Part shown: in pieces, positions 4,573 through 58,146 of the stretch
How the letters are laid out: each line of letters begins with the position of its first letter
Numbering within the stretch: the first letter of the stretch is position 1
Source of the DNA: Dyadobacter sp. 676
GTDB taxonomy: Bacteria > Bacteroidota > Bacteroidia > Cytophagales > Spirosomataceae
Assembly (NCBI RefSeq): GCF_040448675.1
Contig: NZ_CP159289.1
Coordinates: 6,989,001-7,053,000, forward strand
Length of the DNA: 64,000 nt
Reading direction: 5' to 3'
Position numbers and translations under genes: made by a program
Notes under the pieces: generated by a model
Told to the model about the DNA's origin: nothing
The model's database searches: none
The model's input: the letters and a program-made list of their open reading frames with translations, nothing else

Positions 4573-4640
4573 CAAAAGTAGCGCAGTGCCCGCCCAGGCT
4601 GTGAGAACGTTTGTTCAAATGATGGGGACAAATGTTCAAA
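4573..4640 (-). promoter_or_regulatory. susC promoter with direct-repeat operator
   Basis: On the minus strand TACTTTTG (4580 to 4573) matches the Bacteroidota -7 box TAnnTTTG and lies about 60 bp before the susC start. No TTTG -33 element sits at the usual 19-21 bp. Two direct copies of TGTTCAAA (4612-4619 and 4633-4640) lie just upstream, 21 bp apart, which is two helical turns. A direct repeat with this period is what an AraC-type dimer, such as the C-terminal domain of the divergent hybrid regulator, commonly binds. The box and repeats are seen directly; the binding protein is inferred. Confidence 0.5.
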
Positions 4641-4756
4641 AACACCTTAAAAGTGCCGGATTTCGGGATGAAGTTGGATTAAACAGGTAATCCGGACCGG
4701 TAAGAGATGTATTTCCGTCGTCGTGTAAGTAACGCAATGCCAATCGAAGGATCACC

Positions 4757-43794: not shown

Positions 43795-45762
43795 ATGCAG
43801 CATACCATTAAAATATACCTTGGCGCGACCGTCGCATGGTGCATTCAGGTATTCCCGGCCGAAGCACAGCAGCGCGTCCAGCCCGTGCATTTCTCGGAAG
43901 TGACCATTACCGATCATTTCTGGAAACCCAAACAGGAGAAAGTCGCTACCGCGACGTTGAATGCCTGTATTATCCAGACAGAGGAGAAGTCGGGCCGTAT
44001 CCGGAACTTCGAAAAAGCGGGCCGCAGGCAGGGCGAAAAACACGAAGGCATCTACTACGACGACAGCGATGTGTATAAGGCTATCGAAGCCATGGCTTAC
44101 TCGCTCAAAAACCGCCCCGACGCCGAACTGGAACGTAAAGCCGACGAATGGATCGACAAAATCGCCGCTGCCCAGCTTCCGGACGGGTACCTGAACACCT
44201 ATTACACGTTGACCGACCTCAAACTACGCTGGACCGACATGGAAAAGCATGAGGATTACTGTGCAGGACATTTGATCGAAGCGGCCGTCGCCTATTACAA
44301 CACAACCAGCAAACGGAAGTTACTCGACGTCGCGATCCGCTTCGCCGACCATATCGATTCCACTTTCCGCGTCGCCAACCGCCCGTGGGTATCAGGACAC
44401 CAGGAAATCGAACTGGCATTGATGAAACTCTACCATCTCACGCGGGAAGACCGTTACCTGAAACTCGCCGACTGGTTTCTCGAACAGCGCGGGCATGGCC
44501 ACGGCAAAGGCAAGATCTGGGACGAATGGAAAGATCCCAAATACTGCCAGGACGATGTGCCGGTCAAACAACAGAAAGAAATCACTGGTCACGCCGTGCG
44601 CGCGATGTACCAGTACACAGGCGCGGCCGACGTCGCCTCCGTGACCAGAGACCCTGGCTATCTGAACGCCATGACGGCCGTTTGGGAAGATGTGGTGTAC
44701 CGCAACATGTACCTTACCGGCGGAATCGGCTCATCGGGCCATAACGAAGGCTTCACCGACGACTACGACCTGCCCAATGGCGCGGCTTACAGCGAAACCT
44801 GTGCCTCGGTAGGTATGGTTTTCTGGAACCAGCGCATGAACTCGCTCACCGGCGACGCCAAATACATCGATGTTCTGGAAAGAAGTCTTTACAACGGCGC
44901 ATTGGACGGCCTGAGCCTTGGCGGCGACCGCTTTTTCTATGGTAACCCGCTATCGTCGGCCGGCAACAATGCCCGGAGCGCGTGGTTTGGAACGGCCTGC
45001 TGCCCTTCGAACGTCGCCCGGCTGGTGGCTTCCGTGGGCGATTATATTTACGGAAAATCAGAAAGCCGGATATGGGTAAACCTGTTTATCGGAAGCAATA
45101 CCGATTTCCGGATCGGGAAAACCACGGTGCCGCTGAAAATGGAGACGAATTATCCGTGGGAGGGCAACGTCAGAATCAGGGTTACGCCGGCGCAAAAAGT
45201 AAAGTATGCATTGAATCTCCGCATTCCGGGCTGGGCCACGGACACGCCCGTACCCGGCGGGTTGTACAATTTCGCGGCCGCCGGCAATGGAAAAGTGGAG
45301 ATCCTGCTGAACGGAAAACCGGTTAATTATGAAATGGATAAAGGTTACGCGGTGATCGACCGCACCTGGCAGAACGGCGACGAGATCGAAGTGCGGCTGC
45401 CGATGGACGTCCGGCAAATCAGGGCGCGCAAGGAGGTCAAGGCCGATGAAGACCGCATCGCACTCCAACGCGGGCCGATCGTGTATTGTGTGGAGGGCGT
45501 CGACAACGCCGGGGAGGTGTGGAACCTGCTCGTTCCGGCAAATGCCTCGTTTACTACAGGAACAGGCCGGGTACTCAACGAACCGGTCGTCACGATTCAG
45601 GCCAACCTGCAAGTTGTCAAAGCCGCACCGGACGGTTTAAATATCAGAACGGAGCCGCAAACGGTAACGGCCATCCCCTACTACACCTGGGCCAACCGCG
45701 AACGGAGCCCGATGCAGGTGTGGCTGCCCATGAAGATCAAAAATATCAAAATTGCGGAGTAG
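43795..45762 (+). CDS. Beta-L-arabinofuranosidase, glycoside hydrolase family 127
   Basis: This is a 655-residue secreted enzyme with signal peptide VFPAEAQQ. HypBA1-type features are present in order: [10 protein letters not shown] near the N-terminus, [29 protein letters not shown]-like [12 protein letters not shown], the Zn/catalytic [10 protein letters not shown] (Glu near 334, Cys near 336) and [12 protein letters not shown] (Cys near 402 and 403), then C-terminal beta-domains ending [14 protein letters not shown] and QVWLPMKI. It is expected to cleave terminal beta-L-arabinofuranose from arabino-oligosaccharides or hydroxyproline-rich glycoproteins. It is the last gene of the operon; its 3' end overlaps the convergent HisD-like gene by 17 bp. 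Confidence 0.95.
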
Positions 45763-47038
45763 CCGCATTTTTGTAACGTCTTACGCGCAATGCGGCCTGC
45801 TCCTTGTGCCCCATAAATCCCTCGATTTCGCACAAACGCATGCCATATTCCCCGATGACCACGCTCGCTTCCGGCGTACAACGCTGGTAAGTGCAGTTTT
45901 TCAGAAACTTTCCGACCCACAGTCCGCCGGTATACCTGGCCGCCTGGCGGGTCGGGAGCGTATGATTTGTACCGATCACCTTATCCCCGTACGCCACGTT
46001 CGTTTCCGGCCCCAGGAAAAGCGCCCCGTAATTGGTCATATTTTCAAGAAAATAGTCGGGATTGCGGGTGAGCACCTCCACATGCTCGTAAGCGAGCCTG
46101 TCGGCCTCCGCAAGTGCCTCCGCTTCGTCAGCAACCAGGATTACCGCACCATTGTCCCGCCATGCTACGCCCGCTATGTCGGCAGTGGGCAGGGTTTCCA
46201 GTTGCCGCTCTATTTCGGCCAGCGTTTTCCGGGCGAGTTTTTCGGAAGTGGTGATCAGCACGCCCGGAGACGTTGGCCCGTGCTCGGCCTGGCCCAGAAG
46301 ATCGCAGGCGACCATTTCGGCGTCGGCGGTTTCATCGGCGATGACCAGGATTTCCGTCGGTCCGGCAAACAAATCGATCCCCACGCGGCCGTAAAGTTGT
46401 CGCTTGGCCTCTGCCACGTAAGCGTTGCCCGGTCCGACGATCATGTCCACGGCAGGGATCGTTTCCGTTCCCAACGCCATGGCAGCCATAGCCTGCATGC
46501 CGCCGAGCAGGTAAATCTCGTCCGCACCCGCCATATGCATCGCGGCGACAGTCGCAGCGGGGATTTGCCCCTTGATAGGCGGCGTACAGGCGATTACCCG
46601 CTTTACACCTGCTATTTTGGCGGTAAGAACGCTCATATGTGCCGACGCGACCATCGGGTAGCGCCCACCAGGAATGTAGCAGCCTGCACTGGCGACAGGG
46701 ATGTTCCTGTGCCCCAAAATGACACCGGGAATAGTCTCGACCTCGATGTCGCGGATCGACTCGCGCTGCTGTTGGGCAAAAAAACGGATTTGCCGTTGCG
46801 CGAAGGCAATGTCGTCGATCACCTCCCGCGGGACCGTCGCTATAATTTCGCCGATCTGCTCTTCGCTCAGCTTGAACGAACCGGGCGACCAGTTGTCGAA
46901 CTGCCCGGAATATTTTCGGACGGCGGCGTCGCCGTTGGCTTCGATATCCCTGATAACCCCGGCCACGACTGCTTTCACCTTTTCGTCGGCCTCATGCTGC
47001 TCGGCGGCGCTTTTGCCCGCTTTTATAATGGTTGCCAT
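45746..47038 (-). CDS. Histidinol dehydrogenase-like NAD-dependent dehydrogenase
   Basis: This is a 430-residue HisD-family enzyme (E. coli HisD is 434). It keeps the HisD landmarks [39 protein letters not shown] (Gln and His zinc ligands), GTNHTLPT (catalytic His region) and [11 protein letters not shown] (C-terminal His). HisD oxidises an amino alcohol to an acid in two NAD steps; paralogues act on other hydroxy substrates such as sulfolactate. No his genes are nearby, and it sits divergent from an AraC regulator in a catabolic cluster, so a non-histidine substrate is likely. I chose the ATG at 47038 (MATIIKAG). Confidence 0.88.
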
Positions 47039-47062: not shown

Positions 47063-47129
47063 CAAAAGTAAAATTCCCGCCGCCGCATTGCTATTACTTT
47101 TATAGCGGTTTGTAATACAATTTTTCAAA
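47063..47129 (-). promoter_or_regulatory. Promoter of the HisD-like gene with cluster-wide operator
   Basis: TACTTTTG on the minus strand (47070 to 47063) is a -7 box 24 bp before the start. No -33 TTTG is present. TAATACAATTTTTCAAA (plus strand 47113-47129) lies 42 bp upstream of the box and matches 13 of 17 positions of the motif TGATACTATCTTTCACA found at two other promoters in this cluster at the same distance. This suggests activation by one regulator. Confidence 0.55.
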
Positions 47130-47159
47130 CCCCAAAAATCATTGAGGCAGTGCTACTTT

Positions 47160-47227
47160 CCTGCTCAATCATGATACTATCTTTCACAAAATAGCAGGTT
47201 TTGAAAAATTGTATTAGTTTACAATAC
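47160..47227. promoter_or_regulatory. Operator array upstream of the AraC gene
   Basis: Four nested signals occupy this stretch. TGATACTATCTTTCACA (47172-47188) is the cluster motif, bracketed by CCTGCT (47160-47165) and AGCAGG (47193-47198). TTTGAAAAATTGTATTA (47200-47216) is the exact reverse complement of the motif copy at 47113-47129. ATTGTA (47209-47214) and TACAAT (47221-47226) form a smaller palindrome just before the start. They fit autoregulation of the AraC gene or looping with the HisD-side site. Confidence 0.5.
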
Positions 47228-47244
47228 AATCCAAAACCCACCTT

Positions 47245-48114
47245 ATGAAAGCTGTTGAATTCCATTTGCCACAGGACGTCGACAAGTCCTTCATTGTATT
47301 TCGCGAAACGGGCGATTTCTTCCCTGCACCGTGGCATTATCATGCTCACTACGAATTCGTTATGGTCAACAAAAGCACGGGCAGGCGGATGGTGGGCGAC
47401 CATATCGGATACTTCGAGGAAAACGACCTTGTGTTTATGGGTTCGTTGCTGCCGCATGTGTGGGTCAACGATCCGATCTACCTCGAGCGCCGCGCACCGG
47501 AAAAAGCCGATGCCCTGGTGATCCACTTCACGGACGATTTCCTGGGAGAGGATTTTATGAATATTCCGGAAATCGATGATTTTAAAAAAGTGCTCAAACT
47601 GGCCGACCGCGGTATGGCTTTGCGAGGGGAAACGAGGGACAAAATCAATGCGCTGATCCGCCAAATGCCCGCACAGAATGGCCTGCAAAGGTTATCGTCG
47701 CTGATGCTGATCTTCGATATCATGTCAGGCACCACCGAATTCGACCTTTTGGCCAGCCCGCGCTTCGTCCAGAATTTCCATTTCGGCTCGTCGGATCGCT
47801 TTAAAAAAATCACGGGTTACATTATGCAGAATTTCGACAAGGACATCAGCCTCGCCGAAATCGCGTCCGTCGGCAATATGGGCGTCACCGCTTTTTGTAA
47901 CTTTTTCAAGGAACAGTTCCGCGTCACTTTTGTGGAATACCTCACCACCGTGCGCATCGGGCACGCCTGCAAGCTGCTTTCCCAGCACGACCGCAATGTC
48001 GTCGAAGTCGCCTACGAATGCGGGTTCAACAATCTGGCCAATTTCAACCGCCAGTTCAAGAAACTCAAAAATATGACGCCCAGCGATTACCGGAAGACGC
48101 TTATCATCCGGTAA
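47245..48114 (+). CDS. AraC family transcriptional activator with cupin domain
   Basis: This is a 289-residue regulator. The N-terminal cupin sensing domain has WHYHAHYEFVMVNKSTGRRM and DHIGYFEENDLVFMGSLLPHVW. The C-terminal AraC domain has ISLAEIASVGNMGVTAFCNFF and VAYECGFNNLANFNRQFKKLKN with MTPSDYRK. It is divergent from the HisD-like gene and convergent with the large minus-strand operon. It is the only regulator in the 45.7-64 kb cluster, so I infer it binds the repeated 17-bp motif and activates the cluster. Confidence 0.92.
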   Translation: MKAVEFHLPQDVDKSFIVFRETGDFFPAPWHYHAHYEFVMVNKSTGRRMVGDHIGYFEENDLVFMGSLLPHVWVNDPIYLERRAPEKADALVIHFTDDFLGEDFMNIPEIDDFKKVLKLADRGMALRGETRDKINALIRQMPAQNGLQRLSSLMLIFDIMSGTTEFDLLASPRFVQNFHFGSSDRFKKITGYIMQNFDKDISLAEIASVGNMGVTAFCNFFKEQFRVTFVEYLTTVRIGHACKLLSQHDRNVVEVAYECGFNNLANFNRQFKKLKNMTPSDYRKTLIIR

Positions 48115-48129
48115 CGGCCGGGGAGGCAT

Positions 48130-48146
48130 TGTGAAATATAGTATCA
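48130..48146. promoter_or_regulatory. Extra copy of the 17-bp cluster motif at an operon end
   Basis: TGTGAAATATAGTATCA is the reverse complement of the cluster motif with one mismatch (16 of 17). It overlaps the stop codon of the ceramidase-like gene, between two convergent genes, with no start nearby. It may be a looping or accessory site, or chance. Confidence 0.35.
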
Positions 48147-49514
48147 GGCTCGCAGCGTCCGGATCATTGCCAGCAGCTTCTCGCGGATTTTCGCCTCCGT
48201 TCCCGGCGCCATACAACTGTACCGGCAACGCCAGGTTTCATAGCCGCCGCGTTCCATTTCATGCCGGGGCGGCACGTAGCCGGCATTCCCGTTGGCCATC
48301 GTAATGGTAAAATAGCTGCCGGTACCGGCCTGTGTTTTCAGGTAGAGTCCGGTTTCGGAGAAAAATTCGCCCGCTAAGCCACCTATAATCCCGCTTCCGA
48401 TCCTGATCGCCTGCGCCGGGCATTCGCGGATAGCCGGCATTTCGGCCAGCAACAGCTGTTCTCGTGCATAAATCCGCTTCAAACCTTCGTCGTCGCAGTC
48501 AATGGTTTCAAAACGCGCCCCCGCTATCATCCGGGCGGCATTTTCCAGTTCTTGTGCCGACGGTTTTACGATTTCGCAGGGTATGGATTCGAATATTGCC
48601 TCCAATACGGGTTCGGGCTGCCATTCCAGGCTGCCGAGGCTATCCACCAGCCGGTCGGCCAGGTCGTGGCCGATGAACTTGCTTTTTTCAAACTGTGCCT
48701 GCGGGTAACGCCCCCCATCCACGAAATCCCAAATATTGACGTCTCCGCTGGTACCGTTGCTCATCATTCCAACGAACTCCCCGCCGGCATTCAGCCGCTC
48801 GCGCAAACGGTGGGAAAAGCAACCAAAATAATCCGCGGAGATGTTACCGTTTTCCCAATCTCCCACATAATGCAGCGAATAATTTCCCAAAATGCCGATC
48901 CACCGGCCGTCAAGCCCCTGAACAGCCAGAAAACCCAGCTCGGGATCGGTGGGAGCCACGCTATGGTCGATATATGCCTCCACGCCGAACGGATTGGTCT
49001 TTACCTGATCGGTCCCGCCGGTTACCGGGTTCAGGGGCATGTAGCCGGGCTTCATCGTGTAACGCCTGCATCGCAGGTGCTCCGGCGCCGCCACCGAGCC
49101 GAACGCGACCCGGGCAGGGCGAAGTTGCTGCAAGGCCGCCTGAACAGCCTCCGCAATACGCCCGGGCAGCATTTTCTCGTAAGCGGGATCGAGGCTGCCC
49201 AAATGTACATCCGCCACGGAGCCCGCCGCGTGCGTATGCGTGCTCGCTATAAGCACATGGGAATGGGCAATGCCCGTGCGGGAAGCGATCAGCGTTTTTA
49301 CACCGTCTACAAATTCCTTCGGCATTACACAAATATCGACGATCACGAGCGCGACCGTCTCTTCTCCGCTTTTCATGACCAGCGCTTTCGCAAAAAGATC
49401 GTCATGAATGTGCGTTGCGTAATGTGTTATAAAATCGCCATTGATGCGCGTGCCGAGAGGTGGCGTGGTTTTAACCTCGGCGGCGCCGGCCAGGAATGGG
49501 GTTACGAAGTTCAT
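48144..49514 (-). CDS. Neutral/alkaline ceramidase-like hydrolase, cytoplasmic
   Basis: This is a 456-residue protein of the neutral ceramidase N-terminal domain family, without a signal peptide. It has GAAEVKTTPP near the N-terminus, VDICVMPKEF, and the zinc motif STHTHAAG (ceramidases have THTHSGPG). GNYSLHYVGD and SNGTSGDVN match the conserved His and Asn-Gly regions. Bona fide ceramidases are about 650 residues and secreted, so this shorter cytoplasmic relative probably cleaves another amide. It is the last gene of the ridA operon, 28 bp after the dipeptidase. Confidence 0.8.
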   Translation of the reverse strand: MNFVTPFLAGAAEVKTTPPLGTRINGDFITHYATHIHDDLFAKALVMKSGEETVALVIVDICVMPKEFVDGVKTLIASRTGIAHSHVLIASTHTHAAGSVADVHLGSLDPAYEKMLPGRIAEAVQAALQQLRPARVAFGSVAAPEHLRCRRYTMKPGYMPLNPVTGGTDQVKTNPFGVEAYIDHSVAPTDPELGFLAVQGLDGRWIGILGNYSLHYVGDWENGNISADYFGCFSHRLRERLNAGGEFVGMMSNGTSGDVNIWDFVDGGRYPQAQFEKSKFIGHDLADRLVDSLGSLEWQPEPVLEAIFESIPCEIVKPSAQELENAARMIAGARFETIDCDDEGLKRIYAREQLLLAEMPAIRECPAQAIRIGSGIIGGLAGEFFSETGLYLKTQAGTGSYFTITMANGNAGYVPPRHEMERGGYETWRCRYSCMAPGTEAKIREKLLAMIRTLRA

Positions 49515-49542
49515 TTGGTTTAACTAAAACAGGATTTCTAAC

Positions 49543-50623
49543 TCATTTCCAGGCATTTCTCAGAAAACGAAGCCAGTTTTGATTCAATATGTTATCGATG
49601 TCCTCGTCCTTGTACCCCCGGTCGGCCAGCATGCTTTCGAATTTTTGCAGATCGGCGATGGAGTTAAGGTCCCAGGGCGACTGCTCGGTTCCGAAAATGC
49701 CGTCGAGGTCGCTCCCGATAGCCACGTGCCGGCTGTTCCCGGCAATCTGGCAAATATGGTCCCAGTGGTCGATCAGATTGGCCAGCCGGATATCCAGCTG
49801 CCACGGATCGGAAACCATATCGATAAACCGGATATCCATTGCCCAGCAATCGAGCATTCCCCCCGATCACCGCGCCGCGGCCGATCAGCCGTTTAATCTG
49901 CTCGTCGGTCAATTGCCGCTGGTTGGGCACAATTTTACGCACATTATGGTGACTCGACCAGACCGGCCCCTCATAAAAATCCATCACCTGGTCAAAGCCC
50001 TCGTCCGTTAAATGGGTGGTGTCGAGGATCATGCCGAGCTTCGACATTTCGCGCATAAGCTCAAAACCCGACGGCGTTACCGGCCCCCGGGTTTTGGTCC
50101 CCGGCGCATACCGCCCCGGCCCGAAATGCGAAAGCCCGACGGCCCGCAGACCGTACGCGTAAGCACGGTGCAGGTACGATACATCCACCAGCGAGTCGGC
50201 GCCTTCCAGGCTCAGAATATAGCCAACAGGCCGTTTCTCGCCTTCTGTTAAAGGTTTGTCCCAAAGTTTTAAATGGGCTTCCAGGCCGGTAAGATCGGTA
50301 ATCTGCGCCATTTCGCCTAACGCCTCCATTTCGCGGTACCAGGCCAGTTGCGCCTGCGTCATCGCCCATGCCTGTTGCGGCGAATGCCAGCCTGCCAGCG
50401 CGCTGCCGAAGGGTGTGTACCGGGCCAACTGCGTCGCCACGACGATGGCTACATTGCCTTTTCGCAGTTCGGGCAGACAAACGGTGCCCTTTCCGCGGTC
50501 GTTTTTATCCGTCATGTGCATTTCCCGCTGCCGGATTTCGTCCAGCGGGCGCGTAAGGTCCCGGTTCCACTCGATCGCGTTCATCGCCAGGTCGAGGTGA
50601 GCGTCGAATATCCATCGGCCCAT
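49543..50623 (-). pseudogene. Membrane dipeptidase family (peptidase M19), frameshifted at 49859-49864
   Basis: The restored protein has about 359 residues. M19 metal ligands are all present: DAHLDLAMN (His, Asp), LEGADSLVD (bridging Glu), DTTHLTDE (His), SSHHNVRK (His) and IGSDLDG (Asp). The family cleaves dipeptides, including those with D-residues, and some N-acyl amino acids. A run of six C (G6 on the coding strand) breaks the frame. With five the reading is VIGGMLDCWAMDIRF and continues to the stop at 49543. ATG 50623 is chosen; the gene start overlaps the stop of the upstream HCDH-like gene. Confidence 0.83.
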
Positions 50624-50625
50624 CG

Positions 50626-51486
50626 TCAATTCGATCCGTTTTTAAGTTGTAAGGCTACTTCTTCGGGTTGGTTGTATCTGCCGATCAGGTCGCGGATTTC
50701 GAGGCTGAATTTGCCCAGCAGCGCTTTCCATTTGTCCGCTTCACCGGGCCGGTAACTATAAAATCCCTCTCCCTCCGCCATTCCCCACTTACCCTTTTCC
50801 ATCATTTCACTGAAAAAAGCCGGTAATACGGCATCGGTTGCCAGTTCGCGGTTCAGGTCTTTCATTACCATTCCGTAGGCATAGGTGCCCATCAGGTCCA
50901 TATAACGCAGGTTTCCCGCAAAAGGGAGATAGTACCCGGCATCGTTCCGGCAGGCGCGGTCGATGTCCTCTGCATTGGCATAGCCATTCTGCACCAGAAA
51001 AAAGGCCTCGCGTATGAGCGCGCCCAGGAGACGCATACGTATGCCCGTGTTCCCGCGTATCACGTAAGGGTCTTTGTTCCAATGCCGCCTCGCGAGTTCT
51101 TCGAGCCAGGCGGCCCGGGAAGTACCGGTTATGTCGTTGGCGATGATTTCGAGAAAAAACGTCGTATCGGCAGGTTCCGTCCAGTTCAGACCTATGATGC
51201 GTTCGGGATACAAGGCGTTTTCCTGCAACACGTCCAGGCCGATGGACTCCGTATTCACGCAGATCAGCGTTTCGCCGGGCACCGCTCCTTCGATCGCCCG
51301 AATCCAGTCCGTTTTAACGGCTTCGTTTTCTTCGGTTACCAGGATCACCAGGCCGGCCTCTTGTAACCGCTCTCCTTTCAACTCCGTCAGTACCCGAAAC
51401 CCGGCCCCGTTCAGGCAGCTTGCGATACTGTCCGCAATGGGATGTGTCCCCAGCAGGAGCGCCGGTTCATGGCTGCTTTCTTTCAT
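50626..51486 (-). CDS. 3-hydroxyacyl-CoA dehydrogenase-like protein with degenerate NAD motif
   Basis: This is a 286-residue protein of the 3HCDH family. The C-terminal helical domain is clear: RGNTGIRMRLLGALIREAFF, DIDRACRNDAGYYLPFAG and LMGTYAYGMVMKDL. The N-terminal Rossmann region begins LLLGTHPIADSIASCL, where the G-x-G-x-x-G loop is lost, so NAD binding is doubtful. It is a paralogue of the gene at 52809, two genes upstream in the same operon; the pair may form a heteromer. ATG 51486 is chosen. The stop overlaps the dipeptidase start region. Confidence 0.78.
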   Translation of the reverse strand: MKESSHEPALLLGTHPIADSIASCLNGAGFRVLTELKGERLQEAGLVILVTEENEAVKTDWIRAIEGAVPGETLICVNTESIGLDVLQENALYPERIIGLNWTEPADTTFFLEIIANDITGTSRAAWLEELARRHWNKDPYVIRGNTGIRMRLLGALIREAFFLVQNGYANAEDIDRACRNDAGYYLPFAGNLRYMDLMGTYAYGMVMKDLNRELATDAVLPAFFSEMMEKGKWGMAEGEGFYSYRPGEADKWKALLGKFSLEIRDLIGRYNQPEEVALQLKNGSN

Positions 51487-51512
51487 CGGCTGACAGGCCC
51501 GCGGCCCGGTTT

Positions 51513-52812
51513 TCAGATTTGTTTCAATGCTTTTCCGGCGGCGGCGATCGCCGTTTCGATATCTTCGTCGGTGTGTACAGCGCTGATGTACCAAAGCCCC
51601 CGCCCGATTACCCGCACGCCTTCCTCGTGCATGGCGGCGATGAATCTGCCAAGTTTGGCTTTGTCGGCAGTCAGCGTGTCGCGATAATCGCTGGTTTTTT
51701 CGAGGGTGGTGAAACTTGTCGCAAACATCGGTCCCGGCCCTTCTGCGAGCATGGGGTGCCCGCTTTCGGCTGCGGCTTTCCGCAAACCGGCCATGAGCTT
51801 TCTCCCCAGCCGGAACATTCGTTCGTGAGGCCGGTCGTTTTCCAGCACCGAAATCGTAGCCAATGCCGCGGCGACCGTCGGGTTACCGGCATTCATTGTG
51901 CCCGCGTGGATCACTTTCGCCTGCTCGATCAGCCGCATCCACTCATACTTACCCACAATGGCGCTGATAGCGTAGCCGCTGGCTATGGCCTTGGCGAAAA
52001 CCGAGAGATCGGGTGTGACGCCAAAATACTCCTGCGCGCCCCCAAGCGACAACCGGAAACCGGTAATGACCTCGTCGAAAATCAATGCGATATTATTCCG
52101 GGAACAAATATCCCTTAATCCCTGCAGGAAGCCGGGTCCTGGTTCGATGCATCCGTTATTGCACATCACCGGCTCCGTGATGACGGCCGCAATTTCGTGG
52201 CCCCGCCGGGCGACGGTCCGCTCAACCAGCGCCAGGTCGTTCCAGGGTAAAATAATGAACTCGTGCTCCACACCTTCCGGCAACCCCTCTGTCCAGGGAA
52301 AGACATTAGGCTGCTCGCGGCTGCCCAACGCCTCCGCCGACGGCGTACTGACGCCCCAGCAGACGTTGTCCATCCAGCCGTGGTAATGCCCCTCGAAACG
52401 CAAGAACTTGCTTTTACCGGTCCGGGCGCGCGCCACGCGAAAAGCGGTTTGTACAGCCTCGGACCCGTCCAGGCAGAACCGCATCATCTCCGCCGAGGGG
52501 ATCAGCAGGTTCAGCTTTTCGGCGAGTTCCACTTCGCGGATATGCTGACCGGCGAAGAGCTGTCCCGCCCGGGAATATTCCTCTACGGCCCGTAGCACCT
52601 CGGGATGGGAATGTCCGAGAATGAGGGGCCCCTGGCTGAGCGTAAAATCGAGGTACTCGTTACCATCGACATCGTATATAAGGCTCCCGCGCCCGTGCGT
52701 ATAAAAGAGTGCGTGCGGGTGGTTGTATTTCCTGAATTCGGAAGAAACGCCGCTGGCGAGCACTTTTTTTGGCCCTTTCAAGCAATTCGGCGGATTTCTG
52801 GTAGGTTTTCAT
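51513..52812 (-). CDS. Class III (glutamate-1-semialdehyde type) aminotransferase, N-terminal frameshift at 52764-52770
   Basis: This is a PLP-dependent aminotransferase or aminomutase of about 432 residues. It has LILGHSHPEVLRAV, FCLDGSEAVQTAFRVAR, HYHGWMDN, LIFDEVITGFR (PLP-binding Asp) and VFAKAIASGYAISAIVG with the Schiff-base Lys. An ATG at 52812 (MKTYQKSAELLERAKK) is joined to the rest if one T of the T7 run is removed, giving AKKVLASGVSSEF as in GSAM proteins. Its start overlaps the HCDH stop by 4 bp (ATGA), supporting this start. It is far from heme genes, so transamination of a pathway intermediate is more likely than tetrapyrrole synthesis. Confidence 0.88.
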
Positions 52813-53781
52813 TGCAAATAGGCTTTAACTTTTTCGGCTGAGTATTCTTCCGCCAGGTCACGGATCTCCTGGTTGAACCGGGCAAATGCTTCGTCCCACC
52901 GGCGGCCTTCCCCATTTTCGTAGGGATAAAGTCCGAGATTGTTGTGAACACCCCGCGCACCTTCCCGTACCATACGCTGCATGACCGCCGGGACGTCGGT
53001 ACTGTTGTCGAGTTGCGGGAAAATCCGGGCGAGTATTTTTTCATAATCATTCAGCCCCATGTAATCCAGGCGCCGGAAAATACCCATGAGCGTCATCCAC
53101 GAACCCGCATCGTAACGGAAGGCCTTATCGATTTCCTCACGGGTGGCATTTCCGGCTTCGAGCTGGTGAAATATTTCCCGGTAAACGGCGTACATCAGGC
53201 GGTTGGTAATGAAGCCCCGGATGTCTTTTTTCAGCAATGTAGGCTCCTTGCCCCAATGGTGCGCCATTTCAAAAACCTGCTCCGCGAACCGGGGATCGGT
53301 TTGTCCGCCGCAGGTAATTTCCAGAAAGCGGGTCATGAATGCCGGCTCGGCCCAATGAATACCGAGGAACCGTGCGGGGTGCTCCACATACTTCTGGAAG
53401 CTCGCTGATCGGTATCGCCGAAGTGTTGCTGCCGATAACGCAGTCGCGGCCGACCGAACCGGTAATTTTTTGATACACAGCAGATTTTATCTCAGGCTTT
53501 TCGATCACGCATTCGATCACGAGAACGCAGTCGCTCAGAACCGAATAATCCTCCGAAACGGTCAGAGCGTCCAGGCAAGGTTGTACCGAACCGATCAGCC
53601 CTGCTCCGACGCATTGCCGCAGCTGGGCCGCAATCCGCTCCGGCGCTTCCCCGGCTTCCGGCGCGATGGGCGCGATGGCTTTGACCGGGTGCCCCGCCGC
53701 AAGCAACGCCGCGACAATGCTGCTACCCATCAGCCCCAGCCCCACCACGCCCACCGGAGCCAATTTCGACGGTTCGTTCAT
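52809..53781 (-). pseudogene. 3-hydroxyacyl-CoA dehydrogenase family protein, frameshifted near 53396
   Basis: The restored protein has about 323 residues. The N-terminal Rossmann domain has GVVGLGLMGSSIVAALLAAGH (intact G-x-G-x-x-G) and SNTSAIPISEL, followed by the C-terminal 3HCDH domain (HPARFLGIHWAEPAF, IRGFITNRLMYAVYREIFH, DAGSWMTLMGIFRRLDYMG). The frame breaks at TTCC on the coding strand near 53396; dropping one base gives ISELQKYVEHPARFLG. Family relatives include L-carnitine and L-gulonate dehydrogenases, which oxidise free 3-hydroxy acids rather than CoA esters. It starts 9 bp after ridA. Confidence 0.83.
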
Positions 53782-53790
53782 AGCGATGGA

Positions 53791-54174
53791 TCAGGCGGGC
53801 AGTTTGACGATGCAGTCTATTTCGACTTTGATATTTTCGGCCAGCACCGACTGGACCGTCGTGCGGGCCGGCTTGATGCCCGGAAAATAGGAGGCGTAAA
53901 CCGCATTGTAGCGGTCGAAGTCATCGATATCAGCCAGGTGTGCCGTGCATTTGACCACATTTTCTATGGTTCCTCCGGCTGCACGGATAATCGCCGCGAT
54001 GTTGTCCAGTGTGCGTGCGGTCTCCTCTTCGATCGTGCCGAGAATGAACTGCGACGTTTTGAAATCGACCGAAGCCTGGCCGCTGACAAACAGGAAGCCA
54101 TCCACCACCACGCCGTCGGAATAGGCGCCGGTTGCGAAGTCGGGATCACGATCAGGATGAGCTATTTTTTTCAT
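53791..54174 (-). CDS. ridA: RidA/YjgF family enamine-imine deaminase
   Basis: This is a 127-residue RidA protein with the diagnostic PARTTVQS (conserved Arg that binds substrate carboxylate) and the FVSGQASVD and EEETARTLDNIAAI regions. RidA hydrolyses reactive 2-aminoacrylate-type enamines and imines. As the first gene of a six-gene operon with an aminotransferase and two dehydrogenases, it probably clears an imine intermediate of the pathway. Confidence 0.93.
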   Translation of the reverse strand: MKKIAHPDRDPDFATGAYSDGVVVDGFLFVSGQASVDFKTSQFILGTIEEETARTLDNIAAIIRAAGGTIENVVKCTAHLADIDDFDRYNAVYASYFPGIKPARTTVQSVLAENIKVEIDCIVKLPA

Positions 54175-54210
54175 GAAAACAAAATATAATTCTATAAAAT
54201 ATCATCTTCA

Positions 54211-54278
54211 CAAAAGTACATATCACCCCTCTTCGCGTTCTCCTACTTTTCGCTGGATTACTGATACTATTTTTTACC
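54211..54278 (-). promoter_or_regulatory. Promoter of the ridA operon with cluster operator
   Basis: On the minus strand TACTTTTG (54218 to 54211) is a -7 box 37 bp before ridA. No -33 element is visible. TGATACTATTTTTTACC (plus strand 54262-54278) lies 43 bp upstream, the same placement as at the HisD-like and aldolase promoters. Confidence 0.6.
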
Positions 54279-54283
54279 CGCTT

Positions 54284-55064
54284 TCAGGCGTTCAGACCGC
54301 CGTCCATGAGGATATTTTCGCCATTGATGTAGGCCCCCGCATCGGACGCCAGCAGTACCACCAGTCCTTTGATATCGTCCTGATTCGCCATCCGACGAAG
54401 CGGGACTTTTTTTGCAGTAGTTGCTTAAAAACGCTTCCGGCTGGTTGTTGAACAGCCCGCCGGGACTGATGCAGTTGAACCGCACGTTTTTTCCGGCATT
54501 CATCTGCGCCATGTAGCGCGTAAGATTGATGAGTCCGGCGTTATGAAAAAAGTAGTCGGGCGGCAGATCGCCCATACCTGCGATGCCTTCATAGTTGGAT
54601 AAATCGGGACCGAACATGCCCATCATCGAGGCAATACTGATTACGCTTCCGCCTCCGCTCCGAACAATCAAATCCGTCATTTCCCTCAGGATGTCGACCA
54701 TTCCGGTCGCATTCACCTGCATCGATTCCTCAAACTGGCTCAGCGGCGCATGGTAACCCCTCATCGGCCGCGACACCGCGTTGTTCACGAAGCAATCCAG
54801 CCTTCCGAATTTCTCCATAACGCCGGCTTTCAACGCCATCACCGATTCATGCACGCCCTGATCCGCCTCCATCGCGTGCACATCCAGCCCGCGCCCACGG
54901 AACACCGCCGCCGTTTTCTCCGCCGATGCCAGCTCCCTGGACGTCGTAATCACCGTGGCATCGGCCTCCCCGAGCCCCTCCACAATGCACTTCCCATAAT
55001 TTCCCGAACCGCCCGTAACAAGTACAACTTTGTTTTTAAGGCTTAGTAGTTGTTTGACGTTCAT
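54284..55064 (-). CDS. SDR family oxidoreductase, C-terminal frameshift at 54407-54413
   Basis: This is an NAD(P)-dependent dehydrogenase. Without the frameshift it has 259 residues, the same length as the other SDR at 59302. It has VTGGSGNYGKCIVEGL (cofactor loop), VNNAVSRPMRGY, VISIASMMGMFG (Ser) and NCISPGGLFNNQ. The catalytic Tyr motif is DYFFHN: the usual Y-x-x-x-K Lys is Asn here. A T7 run shifts the frame; with six the end reads YCKKVPLRRMANQDDIKGL and INGENILMDGGLNA, typical of SDRs. It is the last gene of the aldolase operon. Its relatives are PtmA-like sugar dehydrogenases. Confidence 0.85.
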
Positions 55065-55070
55065 TGGAAT

Positions 55071-55108
55071 TAGCTGTAAGCTGTAAGCCGTAGGCTGTAA
55101 GCTGTAAG
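55071..55108. repeat. Tandem GCTGTAAG-type repeat
   Basis: Four or five near-copies of GCTGTAAG lie just upstream of the SDR start on its coding strand. The same AGCTTAAAGC/GCTTTAAGC vocabulary recurs at 55152-55191, 56111-56155 and 56204-56228. Confidence 0.6.
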
Positions 55109-55175
55109 TTTTATAGTAATTTAATTCTTGGACGATCTTGAACGGCCCCGGAATCGCTTAAAGCCTAATGCTTAA

Positions 55176-55191
55176 AGCTTAAAGCTTATAG
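55176..55191 (+). repeat. 16-bp direct repeat, left copy
   Basis: AGCTTAAAGCTTATAG overlaps the stop codon of the Gfo/Idh/MocA gene and is identical to 56213-56228. It is part of a wider AGCTT-rich patch (55152-55191). Confidence 0.7.
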
Positions 55192-56106
55192 CCCCACAAA
55201 AACCTCCTGTCCATCTCGCTCCAGACTTTCCTTCGCTCCGATAATCACCTGCATGATCCGCTCGGTTTTCTCGAAATCCAGGCGCGGCCTGCCCTCTTCC
55301 AGCGAGCGGACAAACTCGATGATAGTGTCGCGGAACATCGAGTAGGAATTGCGGATATCGATCAGTTTCCAGCTGTTTTCTCCGAAAAGCGAAATCTGGA
55401 AGGTGCCTGTTATGTTCATAAATAAATGCAGCATAATGTCAGGCCCGTCCTGTATCCTTAACTGAATAATCTCCCTGTCGGGTCCGCCGATATGTCGCAC
55501 CGAATGCGGTATGGGATCGCCGAGAATGGCGAAAACGCCTTCCAGTAAATGCACACCGTACTTTTTCCAGTCTTTCTTTCCTACCGCCGTCACCAGTTCC
55601 AGCCTGCCGAAAGACCGGATCTCCTGCCGCGCAATGCGGCATTCGTTTGCGTAACGCATGGACGAACACGACATCAGGAACTTCCCGGCGCGGTGCTGCT
55701 CCGCGAACCAGGCAAGGTCCTCGCGGGAATAAGCCAGGGGTTTATCGATAAAAACCGGCACACCGGCTTCGAGAAATGGCCGCGCCATTTCGCGGTGGTT
55801 TTCAGGGTCGTCGCGCGCCAGGATCACCGCATCGACCTCGCCGGCCATCTCCGCCAGGCTCTCGCTCACGTTTTCGATGCCCGCGCTCTTCGCGATGCTT
55901 TCAGCGATTTCCGCCTCCTGCGCCCACACATGCGTGACCCGCGCCCCGCGAATACCCAGCGTATCGCGGTTAGCTTCGAGATAAGCCGTCACCGCCGGAT
56001 ACCCTACCCGGGCAATTTCCTCCCCGTCAAATACCCCATTGATAATCGCCGACCAGGAGTAAGGATGCGCATTGCCGGCGCTCATGCCGATGATGCCAAT
56101 GTTCAT
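55186..56106 (-). CDS. Gfo/Idh/MocA family oxidoreductase
   Basis: This is a 306-residue NAD(P)-dependent sugar-type dehydrogenase. The N-terminal Rossmann domain begins MNIGIIGMSAGNAHPYSW, with a variant nucleotide loop. DAVILARDDPENH and VPVFIDKPLAYSREDL correspond to the conserved EKP motif (here DKP). A C-terminal alpha/beta domain follows. It sits between the aldo/keto reductase and the SDR in the aldolase operon. Exact 16-bp direct repeats lie at its 3' end and beyond its 5' end. Confidence 0.87.
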   Translation of the reverse strand: MNIGIIGMSAGNAHPYSWSAIINGVFDGEEIARVGYPAVTAYLEANRDTLGIRGARVTHVWAQEAEIAESIAKSAGIENVSESLAEMAGEVDAVILARDDPENHREMARPFLEAGVPVFIDKPLAYSREDLAWFAEQHRAGKFLMSCSSMRYANECRIARQEIRSFGRLELVTAVGKKDWKKYGVHLLEGVFAILGDPIPHSVRHIGGPDREIIQLRIQDGPDIMLHLFMNITGTFQISLFGENSWKLIDIRNSYSMFRDTIIEFVRSLEEGRPRLDFEKTERIMQVIIGAKESLERDGQEVFVGL

Positions 56107-56110
56107 AGTT

Positions 56111-56155
56111 GGGCTTTAGGCAATAAGCTTTAAGCAATAGGCTCTAAACTTATGC
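56111..56155. repeat. AGCTT-rich repeat patch before the Gfo/Idh/MocA gene
   Basis: Several imperfect copies of GGCTTTAAGCAATAAGC-type units sit directly upstream of the Gfo/Idh/MocA start, related to those at 55071-55108 and 55152-55191. Confidence 0.5.
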
Positions 56156-56212
56156 TCACGGTTAAAACTGTCCACAATAAAAATTCTCCGAATAAAATCT
56201 ACCTAAGCATAC

Positions 56213-56228
56213 AGCTTAAAGCTTATAG
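56213..56228 (+). repeat. 16-bp direct repeat, right copy
   Basis: AGCTTAAAGCTTATAG is identical to 55176-55191 and in the same orientation. It lies just after the aldo/keto reductase stop on the coding strand. Confidence 0.7.
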
Positions 56229-56229
56229 G

Positions 56230-57186
56230 CTACCTAAGCCACCCCTCCCTGTCCCAATGCGGCAGGTCCAGGAACTCGGGGTTGGGGTAGGCCATGCGGC
56301 TGGCGGTTTGCAAGGTCTGGTGGTCCATGTCCGGGCCGCCTGCGGTCGCCAGCGCCTGGTACAGGTATTCCGGCTTGTCGATCCCTACCAGCACCGAGGC
56401 GATACCTTCGAACGACAGCGCGAAACGGGTGGCAAGCGTAGGCAAGTCGGAAAACGAACCGCCCAATAACGAATGGTAGCCGGCAATATGCCGCTCTACA
56501 TCCGCCAAAGCCGGATGCAGGCCCTTTCCACGATCGCTCAGCAAACCCTTCATCAGCACCGACCGCGCCACAATGCCCACCCCGCTTTTGCCGGCATCCC
56601 CGAAACAGGCCGCATGCCGCTGGTCCATCAGGTTGAACGGCAGCTGGATCACATCCCAATGCCCTCTGGCGATAGCTGAGGCGGTTTCCGAAGCCAGATA
56701 TGTCGAAACGCCCGTCGCACGGATAACGCCCTGTTTTTTCAAATCCTGAAAAGCATCGGCAATCGCCTCGTTTCCAAGTATTTCCAAATCGGCATAATGC
56801 AGCATGTAAATATCCACAAAGTCCGTTTGCAGCTCGTGGAGGCTTTCTTTTAGTGAGTTTTGAATAAAATTTTTGAGTGCATGATCCGGCGGAAGGGCGC
56901 CGCTTGAATCGCGGAAGTGCCTGCATTTGGTCGCCAGCACGATATCCTTCCGTTTCGAGGCAAAGGCCTTGCCCATAATGGTTTCGCTCTTACCGTATAA
57001 CCTCGCCGTGTCATAGAAGTTGATGCCTTTTTCCAGCGCCTCGTGCAACAATGCGATCGCCTCGCGCTCCGAAAGCATATCCGCGTGACTGCGAACGCCT
57101 ATGCCATACGGAACACCGATTTCCACACCGCCGAAGGCGATTTCCGAGACCTCCAGACCCGTCCGTCCCAATGCCTTGCGTCTCAT
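56230..57186 (-). CDS. Aldo/keto reductase
   Basis: This is a 318-residue NADPH-dependent oxidoreductase with an (alpha/beta)8 barrel. It has LGRTGLEVSEIAFGG at the N-terminus, NFYDTARLYGKSE (catalytic Asp and Tyr), VLATKC (Lys) and YMLHYAD (His). This subgroup acts on sugars such as L-fucose or galactose. Its start overlaps the aldolase stop by 4 bp (ATGA), so the two are co-translated. ATG 57186 (MRRKALG) is chosen for this reason. Confidence 0.93.
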   Translation of the reverse strand: MRRKALGRTGLEVSEIAFGGVEIGVPYGIGVRSHADMLSEREAIALLHEALEKGINFYDTARLYGKSETIMGKAFASKRKDIVLATKCRHFRDSSGALPPDHALKNFIQNSLKESLHELQTDFVDIYMLHYADLEILGNEAIADAFQDLKKQGVIRATGVSTYLASETASAIARGHWDVIQLPFNLMDQRHAACFGDAGKSGVGIVARSVLMKGLLSDRGKGLHPALADVERHIAGYHSLLGGSFSDLPTLATRFALSFEGIASVLVGIDKPEYLYQALATAGGPDMDHQTLQTASRMAYPNPEFLDLPHWDREGWLR

Positions 57187-57998
57187 TCGGCGTTCTGGTT
57201 TTCGAGATAGGAAGAAGATCGCGCGGCGGCCGACGAACCGAAGGCATTTGCCAATTCCTGGCAATACCTCGTAAGTCCCACTACGTCCGCGCCCACGCTC
57301 ACGAACTGGTAGCCCATCGCAACCAGGTCGCCGAGATTGCCCGGGCCGCCTACCGTTCCCGCAAACTTGCCGTATTTACGCGCCACCTCCGCGACGCGCC
57401 TACGCGTTTCGAGCAACTTGGGATGGTCCCACCGGCCCGGCGCGCCGATGCCCTGGCTGAAATCACCGGGACCAAAGAAAAGCATATCGTAACCATCCAA
57501 TGCGGCAATCGCTTCAAGGTCTTCGAGCGGTTCGGGGTCTTCGATCTGGAAAATAACGAACCGTTCCCGGTTGGCTTCGTCGAGGTAAGCATTGAAATCC
57601 ATCGCGGTATAGGCGCCGTCGGCATTACCGCCATCTATCGGCCGGCGGCCGACGGGATGGAACCTGGTCATCTCAACGACTTTACGGGCATCCTCGAGAC
57701 CCATGATATGCGGTACCATAATGCCCGTGGCGTCCATTTCCAGGGGTCGCACATAATCGCTGTAACTCCCGCGCGGCACGCGAACGAGCAGGTCCGTATC
57801 CTGCGATTTCGAGGCCCACACACACGCCGCCAACGTCGACCAGTCGAGCCCGATATGCTCCTGATCGGCCCAAACGCAGTCGAAACCGCTTAATCCAGCA
57901 ATTTCGGCCACCCTTGGTTCGGAAAGATTCATTTTGAAGCAACTGACAGTTTCGCCTGCCCGCAATTTGCGCAGTACCCGGCTCGCACGCATTTTCAA
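57183..57998 (-). CDS. HpcH/HpaI family class II aldolase
   Basis: This is a 271-residue aldolase of the kind that splits 2-keto-3-deoxy or 4-hydroxy-2-oxo acids into pyruvate and an aldehyde using a divalent metal. FQIEDPEPLEDL supplies the metal Glu and MLFFGPGDFSQGIG the metal Asp; the early WADQEHIGLD and LVRVPRG are also conserved. It is the first gene of a four-gene operon (aldolase, aldo/keto reductase, Gfo/Idh/MocA, SDR). Members include 2-keto-3-deoxy-L-rhamnonate aldolase. The substrate here is not known. Confidence 0.92.
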   Translation of the reverse strand: MKMRASRVLRKLRAGETVSCFKMNLSEPRVAEIAGLSGFDCVWADQEHIGLDWSTLAACVWASKSQDTDLLVRVPRGSYSDYVRPLEMDATGIMVPHIMGLEDARKVVEMTRFHPVGRRPIDGGNADGAYTAMDFNAYLDEANRERFVIFQIEDPEPLEDLEAIAALDGYDMLFFGPGDFSQGIGAPGRWDHPKLLETRRRVAEVARKYGKFAGTVGGPGNLGDLVAMGYQFVSVGADVVGLTRYCQELANAFGSSAAARSSSYLENQNAE

Positions 57999-58037
57999 TG
58001 GATGTTCGGATTAATATTAATCGGATGTAATGTAACC

Positions 58038-58104
58038 CAAAAGTAGCGGCTCGCCAATTGGTCCGCTATTACTTTTATGGTTGATTCTGATACTATCTTT
58101 CACA
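58038..58104 (-). promoter_or_regulatory. Promoter of the aldolase operon with cluster operator
   Basis: On the minus strand TACTTTTG (58045 to 58038) is a -7 box 40 bp before the aldolase start, without a -33 element. TGATACTATCTTTCACA (58088-58104) lies 42 bp upstream and is identical to the copy at 47172-47188. Confidence 0.62.
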
Positions 58105-58129
58105 TTTGCGAATGCGCTGCAAATCCGTT

Positions 58130-58146
58130 ACTTTAAGATAGTATCA
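58130..58146. promoter_or_regulatory. Inverted partner copy of the cluster motif
   Basis: The sequence ends AAGATAGTATCA, the exact reverse complement of the first 12 bases of the motif at 58088. The two face each other with about 25 bp between them, as at a divergent promoter, yet no intact plus-strand gene follows. Confidence 0.5.

What the first reader, a model, noticed from the sequence alone, without database searches (positions are those of the whole stretch)
47063..58146. A repeated 17-bp operator at a fixed distance from three promoters defines an unrecognised regulon
TGATACTATCTTTCACA occurs identically at 47172 and 58088, with variants at 47113 (13 of 17), 54262 and 48130 (16 of 17), and inverted copies at 47200 and 58130. 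At the HisD-like, ridA and aldolase promoters the motif lies 42, 43 and 42 bp upstream of a TACTTTTG -7 box, in the same orientation, and none has a -33 element. Equal spacing at three independent promoters is hard to explain by chance and suggests a class-II-like activator. The AraC protein at 47245 is the only regulator in the cluster.
Basis: partly seen in the sequence, partly recalled or inferred. Interest (0 to 1): 0.8.

Follow-up and report, generated by a model that had tools for sequence, protein, structure and literature searches.

The report
AraC regulon with fixed-spacing operator
A repeated DNA signal sits at the same distance from a set of gene switches in a Dyadobacter-like bacterium and its relatives, and very probably marks where one AraC-type protein turns on a gene set for taking up and breaking down some carbohydrate; the regulon appears new, but it is built on a known plan.

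Summary
The 17-mer is the upstream half of a ~39-bp operator: two half-sites in direct repeat, best read as 21 bp apart, core AAWAGTAWCAG. It lies 42 or 43 nt from a TAnnTTTG -7 box at the hisD-like, ridA and aldolase promoters, and at two promoters just past the window (MFS transporter, SusC).

A model holding no site of this genome (its training sites were picked by likeness to four of this genome's sites) gives 5 hits at E<=0.006 in 7.28 Mb, all in one 26-kb cluster. In 150 family genomes, all 18 with an AraC orthologue have 2-6 hits; of the other 132, ten have one weak hit, none more. Of 28 hits outside the training loci, 25 have the box at exactly 42/43 nt; 0 of 10 control hits do.

Most likely this is a regulon activated class-II fashion by the AraC protein at 47245. 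Binding, activation and inducer are inferred. 21-bp direct repeats are published for Bacteroides AraC-type regulators: a new member of a known kind. Corrections: 54262 matches 14 of 17, not 16; 48130 is an orphan half-site; 58130 is not conserved; lack of a -33 element is uninformative.

The parts
47090..47129 (-). operator of the hisD-like gene: upstream half 47129-47113 (13/17 to the 17-mer), downstream half AAAAGTAATAG
   Evidence: R1 E=0.58, chance level by itself; sites of the same kind with gap 42 or 43 in L117 (6523), L118 (4951), L119 (4959) (their downstream gene was not checked there)
47063..47070 (-). -7 box TACTTTTG of the hisD-like gene, gap 42
45746..47038 (-). HisD-like (histidinol dehydrogenase family) gene, regulon target
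   Evidence: Pfam PF00815 E=7e-141
47149..47188 (-). araC-proximal operator: exact 17-mer plus weaker downstream half, no -7 box at 42/43; 17-mer ends 56 bp before the araC start codon
   Evidence: (E=4.2e-5); exact 17-mer at this place in 10 of 12 Dyadobacter loci
47245..48114 (+). AraC-family regulator, 289 aa, proposed cognate activator
   Evidence: HTH_18 E=2.7e-21; orthologues of 62-90% identity in 17 other genomes of the 150 searched
48130..48146 (+). orphan half-site (16/17) just past the araC stop codon; no downstream half, no -7 box; 8 of 9 genus-g17 loci have a full operator and susC promoter at this place
54239..54278 (-). operator of the ridA operon; best R1 hit in the own genome (E=1.3e-7)
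54211..54218 (-). -7 box TACTTTTG of ridA, gap 43
53791..54174 (-). ridA-like gene, first gene of a catabolic operon
   Evidence: PF01042 E=9.4e-28
58065..58104 (-). operator of the HpcH/HpaI aldolase gene
   Evidence: E=0.0057
58038..58045 (-). -7 box TACTTTTG of the aldolase gene, gap 42
57183..57998 (-). HpcH/HpaI-type aldolase gene, regulon target
   Evidence: PF03328 E=7e-24

Best explanation
The AraC-family protein at 47245-48114 binds, probably as a dimer with its monomers on one face of the DNA two helical turns apart, to a ~39-bp operator: a direct repeat of a half-site with core AAWAGTAWCAG, 21 bp apart. At target promoters the downstream half-site covers about -43 to -33 and the upstream half about -71 to -54, counted from a TAnnTTTG -7 box placed at -12 to -5. 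From there the protein contacts RNA polymerase and makes up for a missing -33 element (class II activation). In this genome it controls at least five promoters in one 26-kb cluster: hisD-like gene, ridA operon, aldolase gene, an MFS transporter gene and a SusC/SusD pair; a further site upstream of araC probably serves autoregulation. The cluster looks like an uptake and catabolic locus for an unidentified carbohydrate-like substrate. Shown by computation: operator, spacing, conservation, co-occurrence with AraC. Inferred: AraC binding, activation, autoregulation, inducer, substrate.
For: Own genome: five R1 hits at E<=0.006, all in the cluster; two of them (susC, araC-proximal) were neither seeds nor training sites. 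150 family genomes: all 18 with an AraC orthologue have 2-6 hits; 10 of the other 132 have exactly one (E 7e-5 to 0.0098). Loci around AraC (17 other genomes, two distant homologues, own cluster): 53 sites, 45 with TAnnTTTG at 42 (39) or 43 (6) nt; only two other TAnnTTTG within 150 nt; background 2.9e-4 per position. All 28 R1 hits of orthologue genomes outside the training loci: 25 with the box at 42 (24) or 43 (1); 0 of 10 control hits and 0 of 7 weak own-genome hits. 18 more sites with the box at 42/43 in 10 loci of further genomes. PWM compared with itself peaks at 21 bp. First genes downstream: ridA operon, aldolase, SusC, BNR-repeat gene, MFS, hisD. The HTH half of AraC is more conserved than the N-terminal half in 30 of 32 relatives. 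21-bp direct repeats are published as predictions for AraC-family RhaR regulators (Bacteroides among them) and for HTCS (PMC3870299 passages, PMC3878776 passages and section 8).
Against: No binding, expression or start-site data. R1's training sites were found with a matrix seeded by four own-genome sites (hisD, ridA, aldolase, MFS), so finding ridA, aldolase and MFS again is partly built in. AraC presence is confounded with presence of the cluster: its aminotransferase is found in 21 of 150 genomes, the 18 orthologue genomes plus 3 with only 40-46% AraC homologues. The 28 sites are not independent (several come from close relatives). 3 of the 28 lack a canonical box (L158, L160, L163). The own hisD site scores at chance level (E=0.58). 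L133 and L135 have an AraC relative but no site in the sequence held; L134's site is found by the matrix only, not by R1. By the best 11-column window, the 21-bp offset (9.5) is only a little ahead of 24 bp (8.3). One search used stricter filters that lose weak matches.
Confidence: 0.85

Rival explanations
1. AraC binds these sites but acts as a repressor, or as a dual regulator released by inducer.
For: A site also lies close upstream of araC, where repression is common (recalled). No expression data exist.
Against: The operator lies upstream of the -7 box at one helical phase (42 or 43 nt in 45 of 53 sites; 25 of 28 outside the training loci). Such rigid spacing is expected of a protein that touches RNA polymerase, less so of a roadblock.
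Confidence: 0.08
2. Another regulator, encoded elsewhere, binds these sites; AraC only travels with the cluster.
For: AraC and cluster co-occur, so co-occurrence alone cannot separate them.
Against: The 21-bp direct repeat is the form predicted for AraC-type DNA-binding domains (PMC3870299, PMC3878776). No other DNA-binding family was found in the 26 other protein pieces of the cluster scanned with Pfam. In the 3 cluster-bearing genomes whose AraC homologue is only 40-46% alike, the stretches fetched hold at most one weak site each.
Confidence: 0.06
3. The copies are chance matches or a dispersed AT-rich repeat without regulatory role.
For: At 3 mismatches the 17-mer has 19 further hits genome-wide.
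Against: The complete operator is concentrated in one cluster, present across genera, and its spacing holds at sites outside the training loci.
Confidence: 0.01

Closest known systems
AraC-family RhaR of Bacteroides and its predicted regulon (PMC3870299)
   Same: AraC-family activator in Bacteroidota; [quoted passage not shown] catabolic regulon
   Different: Its motif is called unique there; rhamnose targets. I compared neither the proteins nor the letters of the motif
Hybrid two-component systems (HTCS) of B. thetaiotaomicron (PMC3878776)
   Same: AraC-type HTH; predicted direct repeats averaging 21 bp between tandem sites; control SusC/SusD loci
   Different: HTCS carry periplasmic sensor, kinase and receiver domains; this protein is 289 aa with only HTH families found
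E. coli AraC at araI1-I2 and XylS at Pm (recalled, from no call)
   Same: Direct half-sites 21 bp apart, downstream half next to the core promoter; class II activation
   Different: Sigma-70 promoters with -35/-10 there; here a Bacteroidota TAnnTTTG box

Membership tests
AraC/XylS family regulators | C-terminal HTH domain of the family (HTH_18) | tested here: met
   PF12833 E=2.7e-21, residues 210-284
AraC/XylS family regulators | Half-sites in direct repeat, 21 bp apart | tested here: met
   PWM of 46 distinct sites compared with itself at offsets 5-30: sum 12.1 at 21, 0.4 at 24, negative at all others; by best 11-column window 9.5 at 21 and 8.3 at 24
Class II activator | Downstream half-site abuts or overlaps the -33/-35 region at fixed spacing | tested here: met
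   gap 42/43 in 45 of 53 sites and 25 of 28 outside the training loci; position relative to the start inferred from the -7 box
Class II activator | Activates transcription | not testable with these tools
   no expression data
Bacteroidota housekeeping-sigma promoter | -7 box TAnnTTTG | tested here: met
Bacteroidota housekeeping-sigma promoter | -33 TTTG | tested here: not met
   0 of 45 with TTTG 15-25 nt before the box; [quoted passage not shown] johnsoniae (PMC7366714, passage)
HTCS | Sensor, kinase and receiver domains | tested here: not met
   only HTH families found in the 289-aa protein
PUL-type regulon | SusC/SusD pair under the same operator | tested here: met
   operator at 7062441 upstream of the SusC ORF L074:6106-9378 and SusD ORF 4596-6167
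Bacteroides RhaR | orthology to RhaR | not tested
   protein not compared

The most novel reading that the evidence does not exclude
A promoter class of Bacteroidota: promoters without a -33 box in which an AraC dimer at a rigid 42-43-nt distance from the -7 box replaces the missing element. It is kept across at least two and, by record labels, probably three orders, and rebuilt at new genes as clusters are rearranged, with orphan half-sites left at old positions.
Probability: 0.4. Interest if true: 0.55.

Novelty: new member of a known kind. Interest (0 to 1): 0.45.

Why it matters
The spacing rule between an AraC-type operator and the unusual Bacteroidota -7 box rests here on 88 sites (45; many from close relatives) and can be tested directly. 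It names a gene set (SusC/D, MFS transporter, aldolase, RidA, aminotransferase and others) as one regulon, which helps to find its substrate. Among the titles and passages that the eight answered paper searches showed I saw no report of this regulon; subscription journals are mostly not in that library.

Tried and rejected
Chance: rejected. Absence of a -33 box as evidence for an activator: dropped, because control boxes mostly lack it too (7 of 85 have one, against 0 of 45). Inverted copy 58130 as part of the system: by eye not conserved upstream of the aldolase-type operator in 7 relatives (only 58 nt held for L118). 47200: not evaluated. 48130 as a promoter operator: no downstream half, no -7 box. 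Genome hit 4176057: inside an ORF, no -7 box. A direct-repeat offset of 24 bp (my first reading by eye): weaker than 21 over the whole overlap, close by best window. HTCS membership: rejected on domains. Substrate: Pfam/NCBIfam names do not settle it. Literature: searches found no paper; others listed none on this regulon by title. Papers opened: PMC3878776 (passages and section 8), PMC3870299, PMC9723704, PMC7366714 (passages); the rest seen in listings only.

Rows dropped: of 47 other-genome sites (40 distinct), 36 distinct went into the model; the 4 lowest-scoring were left out (L058 4929, L062 13511, L061 4944 and 18012). L147 fell outside the script's range and was read.
Full report
Observation. 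Both exact copies, the 1-mismatch copy at 48130 and the spacings 42/43/42 to TACTTTTG are in the sequence. One figure is wrong: 54262 matches 14 of 17. All three promoters read on the minus strand, towards the hisD-like, ridA and aldolase genes. Chance gives 0.03 matches (<=3 mismatches) in the window; 5 were found.

The real element. Laying the promoters side by side showed a second block, AAAAGTARNAG, starting at one fixed place, 11 nt past the 17-mer. The full element reads as a direct repeat: AATAGTATCAG (positions 8-18) and AAAAGTARCAG (29-39). Comparing the position weight matrix of 46 distinct sites with itself at offsets 5-30 gives its maximum at 21 bp (sum 12.1; 0.4 at 24; all others negative); by the best 11-column window 21 (9.5) leads 24 (8.3) only narrowly.

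Genome-wide test. A sequence-only model R1 was built from 36 distinct operators of 17 other genomes. No own-genome site is in it, but those operators had been collected with a matrix seeded by four own sites (hisD, ridA, aldolase, MFS), so it is not blind to them. On the window's own genome (7,284,078 bases, one contig) R1 gives 13 hits at E<=10. The best five, E 1.3e-7 to 0.0057, are all at 7036151-7062441: ridA, susC, araC-proximal, MFS and aldolase. The hisD operator is seventh (E=0.58); the 7 remaining hits lie elsewhere and none has a -7 box at 42/43 nt.

Conservation. AraC orthologues of 62-90% identity are in 17 further genomes of the 150 family genomes searched (own included); the next match is 46%. 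Named relatives in genome contigs are Dyadobacter, Spirosoma, Runella, Rhabdobacter and, at 60-64%, MAGs labelled Sphingobacteriales, Chitinophagaceae, Bacteroidetes and Pedobacter. Scanning the 17 loci, two loci of distant homologues (L072, L073) and the own cluster gave 53 sites above the matrix cut-off, none in L072/L073; 45 have TAnnTTTG at 42 (39) or 43 (6) nt, and only two other TAnnTTTG lie within 150 nt downstream, against a background of 2.9e-4 per position. Seven of the eight exceptions are araC-proximal sites; the eighth (L067) has TAATTTTA at that place. The first genes after the sites with a box are the ridA operon (the script often named the longer dehydrogenase ORF behind ridA; in L056 no ridA was found), aldolase, SusC, the BNR-repeat gene, MFS or hisD.

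Co-occurrence. R1 at E<=0.01 hits 28 of 150 genomes, with stricter filters that lose weak matches: all 18 with an orthologue (2-6 hits each) and 10 of the other 132 (one hit each, E 7e-5 to 0.0098). One of those ten (G008) lies inside a diverged copy of the same cluster, upstream of a SusC gene, with TACCTTTA at gap 43. Because training sites came from these genomes, I fetched all 28 hits in orthologue genomes that lie outside the training loci: 25 have TAnnTTTG at 42 (24) or 43 (1); L158 and L163 have near-boxes at 42 (CAACTTTA, TATTTTTA), L160 none. The 10 control hits have none at all. Several of the 28 are orthologues of each other in close relatives, so they are fewer independent events. 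A confound remains: the cluster's aminotransferase occurs in 21 of 150 genomes, the 18 plus three with only 40-46% AraC homologues, so AraC and cluster cannot be fully separated this way. In those three, the stretches fetched hold a site upstream of SusC (G008), a weak site with a box at 42 (L073:2142, G088) and a weak site beside an AraC paralogue (G028).

Wider relatives. With the matrix at cut-off 12, ten of these 14 hold 18 sites with the box at 42/43: L117 (3), L118 (3), L119 (2), L121 (2), L123 (2), L125, L132, L134, L136 (2), L137. L134's is not found by R1 at E<=1, L132's only at E=0.012. L120 and L138 show only the araC-proximal site; L133 (15 kb) and L135 (6.5 kb) show none. At ridA the gap is 43 in the Dyadobacter, Runella and Spirosoma loci, but 42 in Rhabdobacter (L061), L062 and genus g17.

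Mechanism. The -7 box is placed at -12..-5 in Flavobacterium (PMC9723704, passage). That puts the downstream half-site at about -43..-33 and the upstream half at about -71..-54, the layout of a class II AraC-type activator (that layout is recalled from E. coli AraC). Predicted AraC-type motifs in Bacteroides are direct repeats with 21-bp periodicity (PMC3870299 passages; PMC3878776 passages and section 8); the latter suggests for HTCS dimers with monomers on the same side of the DNA two turns apart. Activation, binding and inducer remain inference. The absence of a -33 TTTG (0 of 45) says little, since 78 of 85 control boxes lack it too.

The protein. Pfam finds only HTH families in AraC. The C-terminal part (186-289) is more conserved than the rest in 30 of 32 relatives compared (exceptions L059, L060). 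Of 26 other protein pieces of the cluster scanned with Pfam, none shows a DNA-binding family; not every ORF was scanned.

Extra sites. The araC-proximal 17-mer ends 56 bp before the araC start. It is exact at this place in 10 of 12 Dyadobacter loci (L119 two mismatches, L121 absent) and 0-1 mismatch in Runella and Rhabdobacter, absent in Spirosoma (L057) and L062, though no divergent -7 box follows in the non-g17 loci. In all nine g17 loci the same place holds the divergent ridA promoter. I read it as retained for autoregulation. The half-site at 48130 recurs just past the araC stop in several Dyadobacter loci (clear in L055, L117, L118, L119, L120, L123; weaker in L056 and L058; not seen in L121, L125; by eye), where 8 of 9 g17 loci have a full operator driving susC. 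I read it as a relic of an older gene order or a retained half-site.

Verdict. The finding is supported, sharpened and extended: a new AraC regulon of a known architectural kind, with good comparative support and no experimental proof yet.

Noticed in passing
42371 (GH127), 49858 (M19 dipeptidase), ~53376-53404 (3-hydroxyacyl-CoA-dehydrogenase-like), ~54401-54462 (SDR): Genes that are single open frames in relatives (L118; the last three also in L055) are split over two frames in the window; four such breaks in 12 kb suggest assembly indels (genome completeness 95.3%, same-genus relatives 99-100%).
   Followed up: partly
48130-48146: Half-site conserved just past the araC stop codon in several Dyadobacter loci, where 8 of 9 genus-g17 loci have a full operator and susC promoter.
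   Followed up: partly
47196-47225: A stretch between the araC-proximal operator and araC (half-site-like TTTGAAAAATTGTATTA then GTTTAC) looks alike in L055 and L056 and may belong to araC's own promoter (by eye).
   Followed up: no
L138:10001-10183: In Dyadobacter sp. MSC1_007 only residues 2-62 of AraC match, yet the araC-proximal 17-mer is intact.
   Followed up: no
L171:1634 (G028:C288): Weak operator-like hit just upstream of a 39% identical AraC paralogue, which may mean that related AraC proteins use related sites.
   Followed up: partly
L149-L165 (genus g17 genomes): Further operators away from the araC locus, eight of the 17 on other contigs, precede other genes (BNR-like, twin-arginine-signal and others; names by eye), so the regulon looks larger in genus g17.
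   Followed up: partly
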